Shown: one piece after another, positions 162-10,640 of the stretch | Layout of the letters: each line of letters starts with the position of its first letter | Position numbering within the stretch: the first letter of the stretch is position 1 | Assembly (NCBI GenBank): GCA_022777585.1 | Contig: JALFFZ010000079.1 | Span: forward strand, 1 to 43,441 | Length of the DNA stretch: 43,441 nucleotides | Origin: Bacteroidales bacterium | GTDB taxonomy: Bacteria; Bacteroidota; Bacteroidia; Bacteroidales; UBA932 | Direction: 5' to 3' | Notes under the pieces: generated by a model | Databases searched by the model: none | Seen by the model: the letters and a program-made list of their open reading frames with translations, nothing else | Told to the model about the DNA's origin: nothing | Program-made: the position numbers and the translations under genes

Positions 162-2336
162 ATGATAGATTATATACAAATAGGAATAGAGAAAGGACTT
201 ATTTCCCTCAACGAGGATAAGTCTCGAATTAAATATATATGGCAAAAGAAAGAGCGCAATTATAATGATCCCGAAGAAAAGGTACAAGCATTAACTTTTC
301 TTCAGTTGATACTTGACTATAATTATCCAGTGTATCTTATTCGCTTGTTTGTGCCCGTAACGATGGGAAGCGAAGTTAAGGAGGCTGATATTGTTGTCTA
401 TGGTGATGAATTGTGCCTCAGTCCTTTAATCCTTGTTGAATGTAAAAAACAGGAAGTAAGTGAGGCTGAGTTTCAACAGGCCATCAATCAAGCATATAGT
501 TATGCATTTGCTTTGCCTGGTGAGGTGAAATATGTTTGGGTAACCTCTGGTATTAAGAATGAATATTTTGAAGTTGACAAGACTCAAAATACGCGTAATC
601 AGCTTCCTGATATACCACAGTATGGTGTTCAAGAAATAGCTAACTACAAGTATGTTTATGGTGCAGAACATCTTCCGAAAGAAGACGGAAAACAGCGTTT
701 TTTTGATTTGTCTATTATTGACCAAGCAGATTTGACACGTCGTTTTAAACAAGCTCATGAAGCATTATGGGCAGGGGGCCAGTTGAATCCATCTGAAGCT
801 TTTGATGAACTTGATAAGCTCATATTTTGCAAGATCTGGGATGAACGCAAGCCAAGAAAGATGGGTGAACCATACGATTTCCAAATCATAACAATATCAA
901 AGAAAGAAGAAAAGGACGAGCACAAACGCAGGCTTAAAGAAAATGACAATCTGTATAACAGGGTAAAAGCTCTTTATGAAGAAGGTCGAAAGCGTGATGC
1001 AGAAGTGTTTCGTGACAACATTCGATTAACTCCTGAGAAAATTAGGACTGTTGTGAGCTATCTTGAAAGTGTAAACCTTGGGGAAACAGATCTTGATAGT
1101 AAGGGACGTGCGTTTGAAACTTTTATGGGTTCATTCTTCCGCGGAAATTTCGGGCAATACTTTACACCTCGTGAAATTGTAAAATTCATTGTTGATGTGC
1201 TTCCTATTACGCATGATTCAAAAGTATTGGATACATCATGTGGTAGTGGCGGATTCTTGCTCTATGCTCTCAATAAAGTACGAAACGAAGCCACAGATTA
1301 TTATCCGAATTACAAGAATGATGCAAAGCAATATGCCAAGTGGTTCCCTTATTGGCATGACTTTGCTGAGAAGAACCTTTATGGTATAGAAATCAATGAG
1401 CAGATTTCACGTGCAGCCAAGATGAATATGATTATTCACGATGATGGTCATACAAATGTCATAACATCTGATGGACTGGTCTCTGATGCCACCATCAAAG
1501 AGCGTACAGGTAATAAAGGCTTCGAGTATGGAACATTTGATTTCATCATTACTAATCCACCTTTCGGAAGTAACATCCGGCAGACAGAACAGGCATACCT
1601 TAAAACCTATCAGTTAGGTAAAAAGGAAGAAGATTGGCTTGCGGTCAAAGCTAAGGCTGGTGATAATACCCGTGATGGACAACAAAGTGAGGTCCTATTC
1701 ATTGAGCAGGATTATTTGTTCTTAAAAGAAGGAGGAATGCTTGCCATTGTATTGCCTGATGGTATTCTTACAAATAGCAGTATGCAGTATGTGCGTACTC
1801 AATTGGAAGACTGGTTCCGTATCGTCGCTGTTGTGAGTATGCCACAAACAGCATTTACCGCAAATGGAGCAGGAGTAAAAAGTTCTGTTTTATTCCTAAA
1901 GAAATGGCCGAAGGATCATACGGAAGAACTTGAAAGCAAGAAGAAATCAATTGAGGCGAAGCTTCTGAAAGATGCTGACTACATTGCGAAAAGAGATCTC
2001 TGGGACAGGGAAATTAGGGAAAAACAGAAAGAAAAAGTTAACTCGATGAAGTCGCGCGATTTAAAGTCAGCTACTGCTATTAAGCAAACTCAAGCTTACA
2101 AAGACTGGAACGCAGAGTTGTTGGCTGAATATGCAGCTAAGATTGACGATTTGAAGTCAAAGCTTACAGATAACTATCTTGAACGCAAACAGAAGGAACT
2201 TCCTGATTATCCTATTTTCATGGCAATAGCAGAAGATATAGGCTATGATGCAACAGGCAAGAAAACTGCGGTTAATGAGTTGGATATTATTGGTGAAGAA
2301 TTAAAAAAGTTCATTATTAGTTTGGATAGAATATGA
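162..2336 (+). CDS. Type I-like restriction-modification methylase (HsdM-like N6-adenine MTase) with N-terminal HSDR_N/PD-(D/E)xK-like domain
   Basis: MTase motifs FGQYFTPREIVKFIVD..VLDTSCGSGGFL (SAM binding) and NPPFGS (motif IV). N-terminus has EADIVVYGDELCLSPLILVECKKQEVSEAEFQQAINQAYSYA, which matches the D...ExK pattern of HSDR_N domains. Confidence 0.9.
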   Translation: MIDYIQIGIEKGLISLNEDKSRIKYIWQKKERNYNDPEEKVQALTFLQLILDYNYPVYLIRLFVPVTMGSEVKEADIVVYGDELCLSPLILVECKKQEVSEAEFQQAINQAYSYAFALPGEVKYVWVTSGIKNEYFEVDKTQNTRNQLPDIPQYGVQEIANYKYVYGAEHLPKEDGKQRFFDLSIIDQADLTRRFKQAHEALWAGGQLNPSEAFDELDKLIFCKIWDERKPRKMGEPYDFQIITISKKEEKDEHKRRLKENDNLYNRVKALYEEGRKRDAEVFRDNIRLTPEKIRTVVSYLESVNLGETDLDSKGRAFETFMGSFFRGNFGQYFTPREIVKFIVDVLPITHDSKVLDTSCGSGGFLLYALNKVRNEATDYYPNYKNDAKQYAKWFPYWHDFAEKNLYGIEINEQISRAAKMNMIIHDDGHTNVITSDGLVSDATIKERTGNKGFEYGTFDFIITNPPFGSNIRQTEQAYLKTYQLGKKEEDWLAVKAKAGDNTRDGQQSEVLFIEQDYLFLKEGGMLAIVLPDGILTNSSMQYVRTQLEDWFRIVAVVSMPQTAFTANGAGVKSSVLFLKKWPKDHTEELESKKKSIEAKLLKDADYIAKRDLWDREIREKQKEKVNSMKSRDLKSATAIKQTQAYKDWNAELLAEYAAKIDDLKSKLTDNYLERKQKELPDYPIFMAIAEDIGYDATGKKTAVNELDIIGEELKKFIISLDRI

Positions 2337-3853
2337 AACTAACAGGAATTATTGAGGATGTATTTCGTGGCGTAACAATCTTTCGAGGTTACGCTACATT
2401 AAAAACTTTAGCGAGATTATCTGCCTCTACTAGTTATCAAAGAGACAAAGACCCAGACAGAATAGATGCAATCAAAGATTACATCTCAAATTCATCATAT
2501 GTGTTCTATCCTGAATTAATTCTAGGTTGGCAATTGGATAATCCTGACGCTATTCGAATTATTAAAGAAGAAGAAAACACGAGTAGTGTTTCTTTGAATA
2601 ATGGTATTAAGATTAAAAAGGCAAAATTCAAATTTAAAAGTTTGCCTCTGGGTGAAGAGCCAAAAACAAAAGTAGTTACAATTGAAATTCCAGACTCCAT
2701 CAATGAGTCAATTTTTAATCGCATTGATGGCAATCATCGTTTATCCGTTGTAGATAAAATTAAAGACGAAACAGGAACATACGACAGCGAAATATGTAAT
2801 CAGATAGTTCCTTTCAGTCTGATCATCCAGAACAAATCCAACGATGCGAACAAATTTGAATCTGCATATTTCTATTTGATCAATTCCAAGGCAAAGGCAT
2901 TGACCACAGAAGAAAATCTGAAAGCAATCTTTAAAGCCGATTTTTCAGATATAGAGAAAGAATTACTTTTATCCATAGATAAGCCTCAAATAGATTGTAT
3001 ACAGTACATTTCCGAATATCTAAAGGGAAATCCTATAGACTTTGTACAAGATAAAGAAATTTTCGACTCAGAGATTTACACTTTTTCATGTAAACTTGCA
3101 AAAATAGTTGCAAATACACTAAGTAATTTTAGTGACGACAAAAAAGTCGAATTGCTTTATTCAATTAAATATATCAATAGCATATTTATCACAAGAAAGA
3201 TAAAAACCGATAATCGTGAAGTTTTTCTTGCACTCGTTATTGTTCATTATGCCCAAAACGACATTTTTGATAAATTTGTAGAATGGATCAACACAAATGA
3301 TGTTGGAACTATTGAAAATTTGGATTGTGAACACATTATTCAACTTTTCGATACTCTTCACAAACAGACTTCTTATAAGGTCTTTGTTGCAGTTCCATAT
3401 ATATCATTTAAGAGGGTTAATGAATATAATAAGCTTTTTAAGGAAGTTTTAAGTGATATCTCAAAAAAGATTGGGTTTGGATTAGAATTAATACCCATCA
3501 TGAGATTTAGAGGAGAATCCCAAAGGATTGACCAACGCTTAATTAATTGCATTAAAGAATGCGATATTTTCATAGGAGATTTGTCGACTGTAAATGATAA
3601 TGTTATCTTTGAAGTGGGATTAGCAGAAGGGTGTGGGAAGAAAATCCTTTTAATTAAGGCTGAAGAAGATACAGACCGCATTCTTTTTGATCAAGCGACC
3701 GTTCTTGACAAAGGTAAGATAGTGCCATTTGACATGGACAAACTACAATATATACCGTATTCAAATTCGGGTTATTATAATGATATAAAAAATATCATTA
3801 GAAATAACATCCCAGTTATTGTTGAACAATTAAGAAACGAAGGTCATGTATAA
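2333..3853 (+). CDS. DGQHR/DndB-like domain protein with C-terminal nucleoside 2-deoxyribosyltransferase/TIR-like domain
   Basis: N-terminal half: STSYQRDKDPDRIDAIKDYI..YPELIL..NRIDGNHRLSVVDKI..FYLINSKAKALTTEE, a DGQHR/DndB-type pattern. C-terminal: YKVFVAVPYISFKRVNEYNKLFKEVL...CDIFIGDLSTVNDNVIFEVGLAEGCGKKILLIKAE, a deoxyribosyltransferase/TIR-like Rossmann pattern. 4-bp ATGA overlap with the upstream gene and 8-bp overlap with hsdS. Confidence 0.75.
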   Translation: MKLTGIIEDVFRGVTIFRGYATLKTLARLSASTSYQRDKDPDRIDAIKDYISNSSYVFYPELILGWQLDNPDAIRIIKEEENTSSVSLNNGIKIKKAKFKFKSLPLGEEPKTKVVTIEIPDSINESIFNRIDGNHRLSVVDKIKDETGTYDSEICNQIVPFSLIIQNKSNDANKFESAYFYLINSKAKALTTEENLKAIFKADFSDIEKELLLSIDKPQIDCIQYISEYLKGNPIDFVQDKEIFDSEIYTFSCKLAKIVANTLSNFSDDKKVELLYSIKYINSIFITRKIKTDNREVFLALVIVHYAQNDIFDKFVEWINTNDVGTIENLDCEHIIQLFDTLHKQTSYKVFVAVPYISFKRVNEYNKLFKEVLSDISKKIGFGLELIPIMRFRGESQRIDQRLINCIKECDIFIGDLSTVNDNVIFEVGLAEGCGKKILLIKAEEDTDRILFDQATVLDKGKIVPFDMDKLQYIPYSNSGYYNDIKNIIRNNIPVIVEQLRNEGHV

Positions 3854-5240
3854 TGTTCCTCAACATATAGATAACAACAAAGTCTTCATCCTTCAACGGT
3901 CAGAGATAGAAGGACGTCTTGATCCTAAGATGGCTTTATATAATCGTAAAGTCTTGCACTCATTGTACCCAAAGGTGAGATTGAAAGATGTACTTTTATG
4001 TAAACCGCAGTATGGAGCAAGTGAGTCTGGATTCCCAAGAAGTTCGAGGGAAGAACCTCGTTATATAAGAATTACAGATATAGACGAGAATGGATTGATT
4101 TCTTATAACGAATTGGGGGCAACAGCAAAGAATATTGAAGATAAATACATTCTTGGTGAGAAAGACATTTTAATTGCAAGAAGTGGAGCTACCGTAGGAA
4201 AGGCATACATTCATAAGTCTGCTCCTTATGCTTGCTTTTTTGCAGGTTATCTTATTCGTTTTATTATCAATACGAATAAAGCACTTCCGGAATACATATT
4301 CACTTACACACAACTTAACCCTTACAAAGAGTGGGTTAATGCAATCCAGCGTCCAAGTGGCCAACCCAATATTAATTCTGAAGAATATCAATCTCTTGAA
4401 ATACCTCTACCCAACATAGAGAAACAACAAGTAATAGTTGATCTAATCAAGTCTGCATATTTGCGAAAGAAACAAAAGGAATCCGAAGCCCAACAGCTTT
4501 TGGATAGCATTGACACATATATACTCAACGAGCTTGGAATAACTCTACCGAAAATCAAGACAGATTTAAAGAATAGAATATTCAATGTGAATAGAAGCGA
4601 ACTTGAAGAAAGATTAGATCCAACTGTTTACAAAGATGGTGTTAAACTCTGTTCAAATAATTATGATAATGTGAAGTTGTCTAGTGTTGCATATGTTAAT
4701 CCTACAGGGACGTTTAAGGGAAAAGATATTGAGACCCCAATATCTTTTATACCTATGGAGTCTATAGATGAAATCTATTCAGAAGTAAGCAAACTCGAAG
4801 ACACAACGATAGAAAATGCATCAGGTTTCACTAAATTCAAAGAGGGGGACTTGCTTTGGGCAAAGATAACCCCTTGTATGCAGAATGGAAAGTCAGCCAT
4901 AGCCAAAAACTTGACAAATGGCTTGGGATGTGGCTCAACAGAGTTCTTTGTCATGCGTCCTAAAGATGAACGACTTGCAATAGAATATCTTCACGTAATT
5001 CTTCACATGAAGTGTGTAAGAGAAACAGCGATGCTTTACTTCGGCGGTTCTGCTGGACAACAACGTGTTTCATCTGCATTTCTTGAGAATTTTAATTTGC
5101 CTCTTCCTCCAAAAGATAAGCAGATTGAGATAGCGAACCATGTTTATACTATACGCCAAAAAGCAAAAGCCTTACAAGAAGAAGGCAAAGTCTTATTGGA
5201 GGAAGCAAAAAGAAAAGTAGAATCAATGATAATTGGATAA
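3846..5240 (+). CDS. Type I restriction-modification specificity subunit (HsdS), two target recognition domains
   Basis: Two TRD-like halves, each introduced by a related segment (VFILQRSEIEGRLDPKM and IFNVNRSELEERLDPTV). IPLPNIEKQQVIVDLIKSAYLRKKQ and LPLPPKDKQIEIANHVYTIRQKAKAL are typical S-subunit spacer helices. Confidence 0.93.
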   Translation: MYNVPQHIDNNKVFILQRSEIEGRLDPKMALYNRKVLHSLYPKVRLKDVLLCKPQYGASESGFPRSSREEPRYIRITDIDENGLISYNELGATAKNIEDKYILGEKDILIARSGATVGKAYIHKSAPYACFFAGYLIRFIINTNKALPEYIFTYTQLNPYKEWVNAIQRPSGQPNINSEEYQSLEIPLPNIEKQQVIVDLIKSAYLRKKQKESEAQQLLDSIDTYILNELGITLPKIKTDLKNRIFNVNRSELEERLDPTVYKDGVKLCSNNYDNVKLSSVAYVNPTGTFKGKDIETPISFIPMESIDEIYSEVSKLEDTTIENASGFTKFKEGDLLWAKITPCMQNGKSAIAKNLTNGLGCGSTEFFVMRPKDERLAIEYLHVILHMKCVRETAMLYFGGSAGQQRVSSAFLENFNLPLPPKDKQIEIANHVYTIRQKAKALQEEGKVLLEEAKRKVESMIIG

Positions 5241-5243
5241 CAA

Positions 5244-5630
5244 ATGGAACCAGAAATAGTAAAGACAACAATAACGCCATTAAAGGATTTACTTCCAGAA
5301 ATATATGGAGATGCTTTAAAACCAGGAATGAAAGCAGTTGGCCATGCTATCGGAGATGCACTAGAGATGTGCTTACTCCCTATAACAGCTATGGGATATG
5401 TACCAAAGTTAGCAAAAAAGTGTTTAGACAAACATCTTAAAACATTTGAACAGAAACTGAATAAAATACCAGAGGACAAGAAAACAGATATTCATCCGCA
5501 GATATCAATTCCTGTTATTCAGAAATTATTATATACAACAAATGACACTATTGCAGAACTTTTTATATACATGGAATCTTACCTAACTTGGCCAGACGGT
5601 ATAGTGTACTGCGCTCAACTCCGTTTATAG
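5244..5630 (+). pseudogene. DUF4393 (Abi-alpha-like) protein, 3'-truncated
   Basis: LKDLLPEIYGDALKPGMKAVGHAIGDALEMCLLPITAMGYVPKLAKKCLDKHLKTFEQKLNKIPEDKKTDIHPQISIPVIQKLLYTTNDTIAELFI is DUF4393-like. After ELFI the sequence becomes the antisense of the convergent HTH gene. Confidence 0.6.
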
Positions 5631-5844
5631 CAACAACTTGGCGAGCTGTCAGGTACTCTCGGATGTCAGGCACGTTCTGCGCATATGTAACAAATAAGGC
5701 TTCTTTCTTCTCTTTGTCCTTCTTACGCTTGTTTGCTACTTTGCTGCACTTCGGAGAGCAGTAAACGCTGTCTAACGTCTTAATAATAAAGACTTTGCCA
5801 CAAATCGGGCACTTTCTCTTGATTTCAATTCCTAAATTTGCCAT
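5563..5844 (-). pseudogene. Zn-finger plus helix-turn-helix/excisionase-like protein, C-terminally truncated
   Basis: CPICGKVFIIKTLDSVYCSPKCSKVANKRKKDKEKKEALF zinc-binding N-terminus, then DIREYLTARQVVAINGVERSTLYRLAKLGKIPCI (HTH_17-like). Ends abruptly at GKIP. Confidence 0.65.
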
Positions 5845-6066: not shown

Positions 6067-7197
6067 TCATTTGACCTCCACAAACTTGAATTCCGGGAGT
6101 CCCCTCGCTGCCGAGAATGCATCAAAATCATACTTGTCCCAATTTCCGAGAAAACTCTTGATGTCAGCTCCCCAGGTATGTTCGGCAATCATTCCCAGCC
6201 GGACGGCGAAGTCCACGGCAGTCCGGGAATACGGTTCAATGTCACCTTTTCTCAACCATTGTGAGAAAAGACGTCCAAGCGCCCTGAATTCCGCCATCCG
6301 CAGAGGAGAACTGCCATATCCATAAATCCAGGTATCGCCGATTTCCGATTCCAATATGGGGAGCATTGATTTCTCAGCCGACAGAATCTCAACCACACGG
6401 TTCAGCGAAGACGCCTCAATCCTGGCATTCGGATAACGCGACCTGAGTCTGCGGTATATATCCCTGACCTGTCCGACTGTATGAGGTCCGTGATTGTCAT
6501 TGGTAAAATTGATAAAGAGAGCAGTCTCGCCATCCGGAAGAATGATATCTTCGCCGTAACCCTTCTGATATATGAGGATTATTTCCTTCCCGGAGACATC
6601 GCGCCAAAGACATATCGGGGGAATCTCAGGAACGGAAGCTGCCGGATTTGACCCGATGTGAAGAAGTTCAATGCCGGCATCAGCCAAAATCGGGACAATC
6701 CCCCTGGTATGGCCCGGGACATCGGTCATCTTCGCAGAAATCGTCTTTTTGCCAAACCTTTCATCAAGCCTCTTTGAAAGATAAAGAGACTATTCGAACA
6801 TATCCCTGTTCATAGACTCGGACTCAACGGTATAAGGGACACCGTTCCACACGATGTCCCCATTTTCAACTGCCGTCTCAAATGTCCTGAGGGATTCCCC
6901 GTCCGCCTGTTTCAGATATGCATCCACTAGCCAGGAACCCATTGTCCACACGTATCTTTCTTCTCCTCCGCTTTCACGAAGGCTTTTGGCCACCTCAATC
7001 GCCTTCGGAATGAATTCCTCAATATATCTCTTCTCAACATTGGAATTCAAATCTGTAAAACCGATATCAAGATGTGTCTTGAATACGACAACGACATTCT
7101 TTACATCTTTGTCGGCTGCTCCGGCATTGACGAAAGCCAAAGTGAGAACCATCAGGCAGAGCATCGCACGAAACCCTGCACCAAATAACCTCAGCAT
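6067..7197 (-). pseudogene. GH38/DUF5054-like alpha-mannosidase-family protein, interrupted by in-frame TAG and probably 3'-truncated
   Basis: One frame reads MLRLFGAG..VVVFKTHLDIGFTDL..SESMNRDMFE*SLYLSKRLDERFGKKTISAKMTDVPGHTRGIVPILADAGIELLHIG... The TAG at 6790-6792 is the only interruption. Stops at EFKFVEVK without the usual C-terminal beta domains. Confidence 0.75.
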
Positions 7198-7199
7198 TT

Positions 7200-10100
7200 T
7201 CAAAGTTCAATCTTTACAAACACATTACCTTTCGGAGCTACCTCCGCCCTGCCTTCCACAGACTCCTCGAGCACATTCACAAAGCTGTATGGCAGAAGTT
7301 TGCCGTCAACACCTGTAATCTTCAGTTCAGTAGGTCTGCCATCAGTCTCCACTATGTTCAGAATCACTGACTTGCCCCCGAAACGGGAAGGCCAGCAGGA
7401 TGCAACGGTAAGGTTAGGAGCCTCCACATTGATGAATGATCTTTCCCGTGGATTCCTTACGTAAGCCGATGTCTTGCTTGAAGGCATAACCCTGGCATAT
7501 ACAGGAACCCTGTTGCTGCGGCCGAACTCAGTCGCTGCCGAGTTTGAAGAATCCGTAGTGGAAGTCAGCGCATAAGACCACCTGAGTTCACCTTCCTGTG
7601 AAGCACGGAAGTTGGTAGTCCAATAATTATTCATTACCCAGGAATAAATATGCTGCTTCTCGTGCTTATGGACAAGACGGTACGGATCATTGAGGAGCTC
7701 GCCCATCATAAACAGCGGAATTTCATCGGAGCTGACTATGACCTGGCTCCCGGCATTTCTCGCAGCAACATAATTCTGCACCGTGTTCCAGCCTGCAGAA
7801 GTGCGCGGAATCTGGTTTTCCCCGGCACAGACTGTGCCGCCCGGAACATCGAAATAAAGCTTTCCGTCCGGAAGTTCAACAGGGAATGCGACATAGATGC
7901 CCGACGGATCAGTCTCCGGAAGTCTCTGCAGGGAATATGAGAACTCAATCCTCTTGACATCATTGAAGAGACGCACCTCAACCCTGACTCCGGCATCTGA
8001 ACAACCGCGGAGCTTGCCCTTATAGTTGACTGATGTATAAATAGAGCCCTCCGATATGCCGGTAAACCGCACATTGGTCAGTCCCTCCCTGGAATATTTC
8101 TCAAACACCTTCCTTTCCATCTGGTGTCTGTCACCCTCAAGAGACTCGTAAATTACGGCACCCGCCGTCCATTCACAGGACTGGTCTATGAGCTCGGCAC
8201 CAGTTTCCTTGTCAATGATGGACGAAACACCACCTCGGTCGCCGTCAAAAGCGAGAGTGTAGAATTCGTTGCCAATCTCAATTTCCCCTGAGACACTCTT
8301 CCAATGCGGATTGACTGCATTTCCACCCTCTACCACAAGTTCGTATGTCCGATAGCCCATGGCAGGAATATCCTCCGCAAGAATAGCATAATACCTTCCT
8401 TCACTCCTGGAATTCAAAGGCTGCCATTTCAGCTTTCTTCCGTCCTCATCAACAATTGAGAAATTCTTGTCTCTCGGGACGAGTTCATAGTCGATATAGA
8501 CCTTCACCAGCTCTGTACGCGGACGTGCCATCGCATTGAAGAAAGTAAGCGTAGGCCTCTCTCCCCTGTATAGTTTCCCCTGAAGACGTCCGGCAGCAGC
8601 CTCATACATCATCTGGGTATTCTTCAACGCATCCCATACATAGGAGCCTTTCTCGGCCCACTGAACCTGGGAATTCTCGCAGAGAGGATTCCTGATGCTC
8701 TCGGCGGCACCGAATGTATGCTCGTTGTAGAAAAGCAGGTTCTCATTGATTCTGTCAATTTCGGCAGTGGTGGAGAAAGGATAGGAATCCCCTTCAAACG
8801 CAGCCATGGAGAGCATTCCACCTATTGTAAGCATATCGGACTGGGTAGTCCTGGATGCGGCGGTCTCTCTTGCTGCAGAGCCGAATCCGTCGGTCCACCA
8901 GTCAGGATAGGCAGCCCTGTAAACCGGCAGATTGTCAGAATATTCACTGTCAACCCTGTCCAGGAACTCCCTGATGGTGGCATTCCTCAATTTCGGCCAG
9001 GCATAGTGGTCATTCCACCTTCTGATAAGGTTTGCCTCTCTCATTGAAGGAGGCGAGTTGTCAGTATAATATCCTGAATACTGGACAGATACAAGAGGGA
9101 TATCGTAGCCCCGGTGCTTGAGGGAGGATATGTATGAGAACACTCCGCTCTCAACGCCCTTGTCATCTTCCTTGTCAATGCCCCAGGCATTGGCTGTATT
9201 GTAATGATCCGACCTGTATGAAATCAAGCTGTTCCCGGATGGAGACTCCCATTTGTAGAGAGTAGGTCTGTCAAACGGAATGTCAGCCCTGTGTCCGTTG
9301 GAGCCCATTGTGAGATACTTGACACCTATTCCGGAAAGATAGTCGGCGAGACACCAGGCTACACCGTTCACGTCATTCTGCATTGCCGTCACAACAGGAA
9401 TACCCATTTCACGGAATGTCTTGATTGGGGAAAGGAATGTCTTGTAATTGTCCTCGCCTGAGAGTTCGGACATATTGAAGAACATAGCTGTAACCTCAAT
9501 CTGTCCGTTCCTTACGTAATGCAGGAATTTCTCAATTTGCTCCTGCGGTCTGGACTTCAGCCATTCCCTGACTGCCCAGGATGCCTCACAAGTCCATCTG
9601 AAACGGGAATCATCCGGATAGGACTCAGTGGCCTCACAATACTCGATGGCATAGTCAATGTAGCGGAGATGCTCGGTAAGTATCTCCGTCTGAGGTTTGG
9701 TGTATCCTATATCCGTATGAGTCTGCTGAACAAGATAAATCGTCCATTTATCGGCCGGAAGAATCCTCAGCGTTGTCTCCATCTTCTCCTTCCCGCAGAG
9801 GATGTCGATTTTCACATCTTTGTCCTGATACTGTTCCGGTATGGATATCTCTGCAGAATTGAGGCCTGGTGCCAGATCCACAGTTCCGATCTCAGACCCG
9901 TCGCAAAGGCATTTAGCCCTCACTGTCTTCTTTCCCCAGTTGACGGCTGAGACAATGACAGGGCTACGCAATTCCTTGCCGTCCTTGCCATAAACAAGGG
10001 CAGGAACAGATTTCACGGAAGCAAGTGACACACCGCCGCTTACCTTCGCAAGAGCAATCTTGCCGGAAGCCTCAAGCCTGATATCGTCAAGCACCGTCCA

Positions 10101-10640
10101 GCTTCCTGCGACATTGGTAATCCGCAGGACATTGTCACCCTCAAGTACGGATCGGGCAGGGATTGAGACCCTTACCGGAATTGATGGCGCAGACTTGATT
10201 CCCTTGCCAAGAAAATTCTGGTCCTTGCCTGCAGGGAGTCTGATTTCCGTGGAGAAATCGTTCAGTTCAATGCGAAGTCTTGGCGGGGCAGACGGATGTA
10301 TTTCAACCATATCCATTACAAGCTCCACCTTGTCCGGAACATTCGATGCCACGTTGAATCGGACCATCAGCGTGCCTTTCCTCCGTCCTGCCCAGGCATC
10401 ATCCTGGCCCGGCATTACAAAAGGGATATCCTGAGGGCCGCTCTGACCAACGGAATAGATAGCCGCAGCATCAGGAAACACCTTGGTGATGTCATTATAG
10501 CCCCTTTCAGCTACAGCGAACTCGGCATAACTGTCATCCTTGACACCAATCTGCCATACAACATTGTTCTGAGCACCGGCCCAAAGGCCGACACCCAGAA
10601 ACAACGAAGCAGACAATACAATCTGTCTGAAGTTTTTCAT
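7200..10640 (-). CDS. GH38 alpha-mannosidase-like glycoside hydrolase with N-terminal carbohydrate-binding-like domain
   Basis: YLVQQTHTDIGYTKPQTEI..WTCEASWAVREWLKSRP..GQIEVTAMFFNMSELSGEDNYKTFL..NDVNGVAWCLADYLSGIGVKYLTMGSNGHR (GH38 catalytic pattern). Signal peptide MKNFRQIVLSASLFLGVGLWAGAQ. Confidence 0.88.
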   Translation of the reverse strand: MKNFRQIVLSASLFLGVGLWAGAQNNVVWQIGVKDDSYAEFAVAERGYNDITKVFPDAAAIYSVGQSGPQDIPFVMPGQDDAWAGRRKGTLMVRFNVASNVPDKVELVMDMVEIHPSAPPRLRIELNDFSTEIRLPAGKDQNFLGKGIKSAPSIPVRVSIPARSVLEGDNVLRITNVAGSWTVLDDIRLEASGKIALAKVSGGVSLASVKSVPALVYGKDGKELRSPVIVSAVNWGKKTVRAKCLCDGSEIGTVDLAPGLNSAEISIPEQYQDKDVKIDILCGKEKMETTLRILPADKWTIYLVQQTHTDIGYTKPQTEILTEHLRYIDYAIEYCEATESYPDDSRFRWTCEASWAVREWLKSRPQEQIEKFLHYVRNGQIEVTAMFFNMSELSGEDNYKTFLSPIKTFREMGIPVVTAMQNDVNGVAWCLADYLSGIGVKYLTMGSNGHRADIPFDRPTLYKWESPSGNSLISYRSDHYNTANAWGIDKEDDKGVESGVFSYISSLKHRGYDIPLVSVQYSGYYTDNSPPSMREANLIRRWNDHYAWPKLRNATIREFLDRVDSEYSDNLPVYRAAYPDWWTDGFGSAARETAASRTTQSDMLTIGGMLSMAAFEGDSYPFSTTAEIDRINENLLFYNEHTFGAAESIRNPLCENSQVQWAEKGSYVWDALKNTQMMYEAAAGRLQGKLYRGERPTLTFFNAMARPRTELVKVYIDYELVPRDKNFSIVDEDGRKLKWQPLNSRSEGRYYAILAEDIPAMGYRTYELVVEGGNAVNPHWKSVSGEIEIGNEFYTLAFDGDRGGVSSIIDKETGAELIDQSCEWTAGAVIYESLEGDRHQMERKVFEKYSREGLTNVRFTGISEGSIYTSVNYKGKLRGCSDAGVRVEVRLFNDVKRIEFSYSLQRLPETDPSGIYVAFPVELPDGKLYFDVPGGTVCAGENQIPRTSAGWNTVQNYVAARNAGSQVIVSSDEIPLFMMGELLNDPYRLVHKHEKQHIYSWVMNNYWTTNFRASQEGELRWSYALTSTTDSSNSAATEFGRSNRVPVYARVMPSSKTSAYVRNPRERSFINVEAPNLTVASCWPSRFGGKSVILNIVETDGRPTELKITGVDGKLLPYSFVNVLEESVEGRAEVAPKGNVFVKIEL

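What the first reader, a model, noticed from the sequence alone, without database searches (positions are those of the whole stretch)
162..5630. Candidate undescribed defence operon: R-M genes with an embedded DGQHR + deoxyribosyltransferase/TIR-like gene
Four co-directional genes overlap or nearly touch (4-bp overlap at 2333, 8-bp overlap at 3846, 3-nt gap before 5244), so they are probably translationally coupled. The gene between M and S is not a standard R-M component. Its N-terminal half reads as a DGQHR/DndB-like domain, known from DNA-modification-linked systems such as Dnd. Its C-terminal half reads as the nucleoside-deoxyribosyltransferase/TIR-like Rossmann fold seen in nucleotide-acting immune effectors. 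Adding a DUF4393 (Abi-alpha-like) gene suggests sequence-specific methylation coupled to a nucleotide- or NAD-consuming abortive module. No HsdR helicase gene is visible in the window.
Basis: partly seen in the sequence, partly recalled or inferred. Interest (0 to 1): 0.85.

Follow-up and report, generated by a model that had tools for sequence, protein, structure and literature searches.

The report
Restriction system with embedded nucleotide-cutting effector
A bacterial DNA-cutting immune system (a Type IIB restriction-modification pair) carries, wedged between its two genes, a third gene conserved across many phyla whose protein joins a nucleotide-binding switch to an enzyme domain predicted to break nucleotides such as NAD+, probably as a back-up self-destruct that fires when restriction fails.

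Summary
The gene layout is real. Three corrections change its meaning. (1) "HsdM" is a nuclease-methyltransferase fusion. Its best solved relative along almost its whole length is RM.BsaXI (E 3e-67), with the nuclease residues intact. So M+S is a Type IIB (RM)2S system and needs no HsdR. (2) The 506-aa gene (D) is a ParB/DGQHR nucleotide-binding domain fused to an NDT/TIR-like N-glycosidase. D is a coherent family: 82 loci examined, 67 with Type IIB RM and S alongside (orders M-D-S or M-S-D), in Bacteroidota, Spirochaetota, Pseudomonadota, Bacillota and others. In about six loci it follows the hsdR of a classical Type I system instead. D co-varies with M, its start overlaps the preceding stop, and it is dispensable: most Bacteroidales with this M-S pair lack D. 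(3) The catalytic Glu (E427) is conserved, but the Tyr of true deoxyribosyltransferases is always Phe (F351), which points to a ribo-substrate (NAD+ or NMP). The DUF4393 gene is truncated at a rearrangement or misjoin near 5567 and is not a conserved partner. Best mechanism (inferred): D is a toxin-like N-glycosidase held by, or sensing, the RM-S complex, like PrrC with EcoprrI. No searched library models D as a family. New variant of a known kind.

The parts
162..2336 (+). RM gene: PD-(D/E)xK nuclease - helical linker - N6-adenine methyltransferase fusion (Type IIB RM subunit, BsaXI-like)
   Evidence: HSDR_N_2 res 37-152 E 4e-18 and N6_Mtase res 312-618 E 1.5e-35; family profile vs RM.BsaXI 8w0p E 3e-67 over profile 11-696
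270..617 (+). N-terminal nuclease domain of RM; E38, D76, E93-x-K95 and Q110 invariant in 51 homologs
   Evidence: E93/K95 align with BsaXI catalytic E105/K107 (PMC11997821)
2333..3853 (+). Gene D: 506-aa ParB/DGQHR - N-glycosidase (NDT/TIR-like) fusion, 4-bp overlap with RM, 8-bp overlap with S
2333..3361 (+). D N-terminal domain (res 1-343): ParB/Srx-fold NTP-binding DGQHR domain with Q36-R37, R130-I-D-G-N-H-R136 (nt 2720-2740) and F180xxxN184
   Evidence: TIGR03187 E 1e-8; motifs conserved; AF2 pLDDT 91.6; Foldseek to Noc/ParB-CDP/CTP and Srx, DndB/GmrSD_N-type viral models
3368..3850 (+). D C-terminal domain (res 346-506): NDT/DNPH1/TIR-like N-glycosidase; E427 (nt 3611-3613) in the catalytic-Glu position, F351 (nt 3383-3385) in the Tyr/Phe sugar-selectivity position, N423-V424 invariant
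3846..5240 (+). S gene: HsdS-type specificity subunit with two Methylase_S stretches
   Evidence: PF01420 E 1.8e-21, two stretches; EcoKI HsdS 2e-10
5244..5630 (+). Truncated DUF4393/Abi_alpha-like (PDC-S47) fragment; not a conserved component
   Evidence: PDC-S47 E 1e-29 but only 1-107 of 265 positions; no homolog at other D loci
5563..5844 (-). Truncated Zn-finger/HTH (excisionase-like) gene converging on the DUF4393 fragment; marks a rearrangement or assembly junction near 5567
   Evidence: homologs have 183-392-aa open frames and align only up to residue 90-92; GC 32-39% in the operon to the left, about 50% to the right of 6067

Best explanation
The locus is a complete Type IIB restriction-modification system (RM fusion + S) with an optional embedded effector, D. 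SHOWN by sequence: the RM subunit carries nuclease and N6-methyltransferase, S carries two target-recognition domains, and D joins a ParB-fold nucleotide-binding domain to an NDT/TIR-like N-glycosidase domain whose catalytic Glu is conserved; D is inherited with RM-S across phyla and its gene overlaps theirs (translational coupling is inferred from the overlaps). INFERRED: D is made in step with RM/S and docks on, or is kept inactive by, the RM-S complex. The ParB-type domain acts as an NTP-gated switch. When the complex is inhibited, titrated or finds DNA it cannot restrict, D is released and its C-terminal domain cleaves the N-glycosidic bond of a ribonucleotide pool (NAD+ most likely, NMPs second), stopping phage growth at the cell's expense. 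This is the logic of PrrC with EcoprrI, using an NDT-type NADase like that of Retron-Eco1.
For: RM is Type IIB: RM.BsaXI E 3e-67 with catalytic ExK aligned (PMC11997821). D is a tight family (next-best NDT proteins score 75 bits or less, members 170 or more), with RM+S adjacent in 67/82 loci and in both further full-length cases from an unseeded phylum survey. D was never found without M in the two surveys, but M is often found without D: 3 of 16 and 3 of 5 M-bearing genomes have D, so D is accessory. D also follows EcoR124-type hsdR in classical Type I loci, so it is tied to S-containing methylase complexes rather than to one nuclease. Start-stop overlaps, D-M distance correlation 0.58, and gene order needing 3 changes against 17.9 in shuffles. 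E427 in 67/67; F351 in 67/67. A Phe there means ribo-substrates: MilB F17Y flips CMP to dCMP (PMC4081090), AvNRT Phe7 (PMC7308715), NADase TIRs have Phe/Ala whereas NDT/DNPH1 have Tyr (PMC11204291). Precedents: Retron-Eco1, whose effector is NDT-like, acts by NAD+ hydrolysis (PMC12405507); PrrC is silenced by a linked R-M enzyme and freed by an anti-restriction peptide (PMC2610378).
Against: No phenotype, enzymatic activity or RM-S/D complex was tested. D lacks homology to PrrC. The substrate prediction rests on one residue and fold similarity; full-length Foldseek ranks NDTs above TIRs. The DGQHR relatives DndB and DpdB work in DNA modification rather than killing. The relative placement of the two domains of D is uncertain (pTM 0.64 for the full length, segment 454-460 below pLDDT 50). 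Both the distance correlation and the gene-order clustering could partly reflect host relatedness.
Confidence: 0.45

Rival explanations
1. D is a pool-sanitising anti-anti-restriction enzyme: it hydrolyses phage-made modified nucleotides (hydroxymethyl or hypermodified NMPs) so that phage DNA stays sensitive to the RM-S complex. The ParB-type domain binds the modified nucleotide or regulates the enzyme.
For: C-terminal domain resembles MilB (prefers hmCMP, PMC4081090) and DNPH1 (profile; fold); type IV (Mrr, GmrSD) enzymes against modified DNA are recurrent neighbours of the cassette; sanitising would explain why D pairs with very different R-M types.
Against: Phage modified precursors are deoxyribonucleotides, whereas F351 predicts ribo-substrates (PMC4081090). 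The MilB hmCMP motif F-L-(G/A)-(G/A)-P-F-(R/K) is not conserved in D.
Confidence: 0.2
2. D is a regulatory or processing subunit of the methyltransferase complex (DndB/DpdB-like): it controls methylation or restriction at target sites, and the glycosidase-like domain is a ligand sensor or acts on DNA bases.
For: N-terminal domain is closest to DndB/DpdB/DGQHR; gene overlap of D with its upstream neighbour is at least as tight as that between M and S; D is found almost only next to M-S.
Against: M-S pairs without D are common, and the catalytic Glu is invariant, which a pure sensor domain would not need.
Confidence: 0.25
3. D is an unrelated defence gene using the R-M operon only as a transcriptional shelter, with no functional link to RM-S.
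For: Other unrelated defence-type genes (RhuM, DUF1016, Mrr) sit in or beside the same cassettes.
Against: D is almost never found outside S-containing R-M operons in the set, tracks M in distance (r 0.58) and keeps its order by clade.
Confidence: 0.1

Closest known systems
BsaXI / BcgI-like Type IIB restriction-modification
   Same: RM fusion (PD-(D/E)xK + N6-MTase) plus separate HsdS-type S; nearly full-length profile match to RM.BsaXI, nuclease ExK aligned
   Different: Carries an embedded third gene D that is no part of the described two-subunit (RM)2S enzyme; M is shorter at the C-terminus (724 vs 916 aa); recognition and cleavage not tested
DndB / DpdB / GmrSD-SspE DGQHR-DUF262 (ParB/Srx) family
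   Same: QR pair, (I)DGxxR motif, FxxxN, ParB/Srx fold, N-terminal switch position ahead of an effector as in GmrSD
   Different: Motif is DGNHR; effector is an N-glycosidase-like domain rather than HNH; no phosphorothioation or deazaguanine genes; score below the TIGR03187 cut-off
NDT-like effector of Retron-Eco1 (Ec86)
   Same: NDT-type fold; effector of a defence system that acts by NAD+ hydrolysis in the published case
   Different: Partner here is an R-M complex, not RT-msDNA; fused to a ParB domain; NADase activity untested
PrrC anticodon nuclease with EcoprrI (Type Ic)
   Same: Accessory toxin-like gene genetically linked to R-M genes
   Different: No sequence relation (PrrC: ABC-ATPase + tRNase); silencing not shown for D
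MADS (mad1-8)
   Same: M and S hit mad2/mad5 models weakly
   Different: Far below cut-offs (298 vs 720; 72.5 vs 400 bits); the only extra co-directional genes here are D and the DUF4393 fragment

Membership tests
Type IIB R-M (BsaXI/BcgI-like) | Endonuclease and N6-MTase in one RM polypeptide | tested here: met
   HSDR_N_2 + N6_Mtase; RM.BsaXI match over 11-696
Type IIB R-M (BsaXI/BcgI-like) | PD-(D/E)xK catalytic residues | tested here: met
   D76, E93, K95 invariant in 51 homologs; E93/K95 align with BsaXI E105/K107
Type IIB R-M (BsaXI/BcgI-like) | Separate S subunit with two TRDs | tested here: met
   Methylase_S two stretches, S next to RM in 67/82 loci
Type IIB R-M (BsaXI/BcgI-like) | Double-strand cleavage on both sides of a bipartite site | not testable with these tools
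   needs enzyme assay
Type I R-M | HsdR translocase subunit | tested here: inconclusive
   none next to M or S in the window; own genome has one SWI2_SNF2 hit of 44 bits on another contig; the contig starts 161 bp upstream of M
Type I R-M | HsdM_N-type M subunit without nuclease | tested here: not met
   M has HSDR_N_2, no HsdM_N, unlike L065 hsdM
DGQHR/DndB family | Signature motifs QR, DGQHR, FxxxN | tested here: met
   Q36R37, D132GNHR136, F180xxxN184; note RIDGNHRL was a search pattern, so its total invariance is by construction
DGQHR/DndB family | Curated model cut-off | tested here: not met
   TIGR03187 35.2 vs 58.85 bits; DndB 13.9 vs 29.1
Dnd phosphorothioation | dndC/D/E genes | tested here: not met
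   no further dnd-like gene among the adjacent window ORFs
Nucleoside 2'-deoxyribosyltransferase | NDT fold and catalytic Glu | tested here: met
   2a0k E 1e-6, Foldseek NDT first, E427 67/67
Nucleoside 2'-deoxyribosyltransferase | Active-site Tyr selecting deoxyribose | tested here: not met
   F351 in 67/67, aligned with TbNDT Tyr and MilB Phe
TIR NADase effector | TIR domain above curated cut-off | tested here: not met
   CAP12-PCTIR_TIR 12.8 vs 24.7 bits; PADLOC TIR effector model hits 52/67 members, best 1e-12
PrrC-type R-M-silenced toxin | Toxicity released when R-M is inhibited | not testable with these tools
   needs co-expression and phage assays
MADS | mad2/mad5 above curated cut-offs | tested here: not met
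PDC-S47/DUF4393 (Abi_alpha) | Complete domain | tested here: not met
   1-107 of 265 positions

The most novel reading that the evidence does not exclude
A cross-phylum class of Type IIB (and some Type I) R-M systems carries a dedicated ParB-fold/N-glycosidase effector that monitors the restriction complex and destroys NAD+ or ribonucleotides when restriction is blocked: an R-M-guarded NADase, a second independent invention of the PrrC strategy.
Probability: 0.35. Interest if true: 0.82.

Novelty: new variant of a known kind. Interest (0 to 1): 0.62.

Why it matters
It gives a defined, testable gene triplet in which ordinary restriction appears wired to a nucleotide-destroying effector. If confirmed it would show that R-M systems commonly carry their own tamper alarm, would link the ParB/DndB switch family to NDT/TIR-type effectors, and would revise the annotation of M-S loci of this family (PADLOC files this M as a Type I methyltransferase), which are Type IIB systems.

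Tried and rejected
Plain Type I R-M missing HsdR: rejected, because M is a Type IIB RM fusion. Accidental insertion between M and S: rejected by synteny across phyla. MADS: below cut-offs. DUF4393 as a component: truncated and not recurrent. An apparent D-profile hit on M genes vanished with a profile that leaves out the M-D fusion L016, so it was contamination. L016 (Leisingera, 747 aa) is an RM-D fusion without S: M profile 129-498 joined to D 97-486, most simply a deletion product, not a natural architecture. Phages: no D homolog. Plasmids: only L016. Papers: none of the ten library searches returned a paper describing this protein or cassette; the library holds no bioRxiv preprints and few subscription papers, so prior description cannot be excluded. 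A preprint on genes embedded in defence systems (Payne et al., from memory) could not be read and is the most likely place.
Full report
OBSERVATION. The four ORFs, their coordinates and overlaps are exactly as stated. The window is the whole of contig C146 of a 178-contig, about 88%-complete genome, so nothing is known upstream of base 1.

THE M GENE IS A TYPE IIB RM SUBUNIT. The 724-aa protein has an N-terminal HSDR_N_2 domain (res 37-152, E 4e-18) and an N6_Mtase domain (res 312-618, E 1.5e-35) but no HsdM_N. In 51 homologs E38, D76, E93-x-K95 and Q110 are invariant, as is NPPF at 465-468. The family profile's best match among solved structures is RM.BsaXI (8w0p, E 3e-67), over profile positions 11-696, that is nuclease, linker and methyltransferase. 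E93/K95 align with BsaXI E105/K107; alanine at those two positions, or at E73 or D90, inactivates BsaXI (PMC11997821). BsaXI is an (RM)2S Type IIB enzyme (PMC11997821). The S gene has two Methylase_S stretches and resembles EcoKI HsdS. The absence of HsdR is therefore expected. The own-genome search for SWI2_SNF2 found one 44-bit hit on another contig.

GENE D. Residues 1-343 model confidently (pLDDT 91.6, pTM 0.82) as a ParB/sulfiredoxin-type fold. The best PDB matches are Noc and ParB, including CDP- and CTP-analogue-bound ParB, with Srx further down. Among viral models, DndB-like and GmrSD N-terminal proteins are recurrent matches. Sequence models agree: TIGR03187 DGQHR E 1e-8, DndB in 8 and DpdB in 6 of 67 members. 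The three motifs given for the DGQHR/GmrS group in PMC4619093 (QR, DGQHR, FxxxN) are present as Q36R37, D132GNHR and F180xxxN184. Residues 346-506 are an NDT/DNPH1/TIR-like domain: profile hits to NDT 2a0k (1e-6), the CMP N-glycosidase MilB and Rcl; Foldseek NDT first, then RPPT-TIR and DNPH1. E427 occupies the catalytic-Glu position and is present in 67/67; F351 is Phe in 67/67. That position is Tyr in NDTs and DNPH1, and Phe or Ala in NADase TIR domains (PMC11204291). In MilB F17Y switches CMP to dCMP (PMC4081090). In AvNRT a Phe there goes with strict ribonucleoside use (PMC7308715). I therefore predict a ribonucleotide-type substrate, NAD+ being the most likely; this is inference.

THE CASSETTE IS CONSERVED. 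A scan of GTDB genomes gave 132 relatives, of which 80 loci were kept. With the window and the plasmid case L016, 82 loci were read: M-S-D 40, M-D-S 24, split-M-S-D 3; the rest are mostly contig ends, Type I loci or degenerate cases. In L054, L055, L065 and L085 the gene before D is an EcoR124-type HsdR; L074 and L077 look the same by size and position but were not tested against Pfam. Because the scan was seeded with RIDGNHRL, the total conservation of that motif is by construction, but the neighbourhood is not. An unseeded profile survey of 396 genomes of the phylum found three full-length D genes (the window and two new), all with M and S adjacent. D overlaps its upstream partner by 4 or 1 bp in 27/38 S-D and 14/24 M-D pairs. 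D-M distances correlate (r 0.58, permutation p 0.0005). Gene order needs only 3 changes on the D tree against 17.9 for shuffled labels, and the window's D groups with Treponema and Cryptobacteroides copies, which indicates transfer of the cassette between phyla.

D IS OPTIONAL. Among 393 Bacteroidales genomes 16 have this M and 3 have a full D. In the eleven others whose context was read (some on short contigs) M is followed by, or near, S without D, sometimes with other inserted genes. In the phylum set 5 have M and 3 have D. D is thus an accessory, not a core R-M subunit.

MECHANISM. An accessory with an intact N-glycosidase-type site, an NTP-switch-type domain, overlapping genes with RM/S and association with two R-M architectures fits best with an effector controlled by the methylase-specificity complex. 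PrrC sets the precedent for R-M guarding (PMC2610378) and Retron-Eco1 for an NDT-like effector acting by NAD+ hydrolysis (PMC12405507). A paper in that reference list reports, by its title, that DNA methylation activates the same retron; only the title was seen. Rivals are listed with their refutations. None of the functional steps has been shown.

DUF4393 AND THE JUNCTION. The DUF4393 gene matches PDC-S47 over 107 of 265 positions. The convergent Zn-finger/HTH gene at 5563-5844 is cut at the same place: homologs have 183-392-aa open frames and align only up to residue 90-92. GC changes from 32-39% in the operon to about 50% beyond 6067. This is a deletion, element boundary or misjoin near 5567. 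No other DUF4393 match exists in the genome, and none occurs among the genes of the other D loci. Recurrent neighbours elsewhere are Mrr-type and other Type IV enzymes.

NOVELTY. No model in Pfam, NCBIfam or PADLOC describes D as a family; only partial-domain hits occur, and the ten paper searches returned no description of it. The R-M part is a known kind; the R-M plus D cassette is a new variant.

Noticed in passing
window 5563-5844 (-) and 5244-5630 (+): Two convergent truncated genes meet near 5567, with a GC shift across the junction: a mobile-element boundary, deletion or assembly misjoin.
   Followed up: partly
window 6067-7203 (-): Two adjacent ORFs (6067-6729, 6790-7203), the first with a partial DUF5054 match, look like pieces of one broken gene next to the 1146-aa gene at 7200-10640.
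   Followed up: no
L016:7891-10131 (Leisingera thetidis plasmid NZ_CP109788): In-frame fusion of an RM piece (profile 129-498) with D (97-486) without S, annotated as N-6 DNA methylase; looks like a deletion remnant.
   Followed up: partly
L005-L015, L128-L151: Many other Bacteroidota proteins of about 120-400 aa carry the same type of NDT-like C-terminal domain without the DGQHR half, suggesting a widely shuffled effector module.
   Followed up: no
L091:8819-11383: 854-aa D variant (Cyanobacteria bacterium UBA2855) with about 390 extra N-terminal residues of unknown identity.
   Followed up: no
L098:1037-9104: A divergent D (579 aa) without R-M genes nearby, downstream of KAP NTPase, FRG-domain and DUF5655 genes.
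   Followed up: no
L050, L052, L094 (629-aa gene) and L058, L064 (875-aa gene) downstream of D: Recurrent large genes directly downstream of the M-S-D cassette in Alphaproteobacteria; possible further partners.
   Followed up: no
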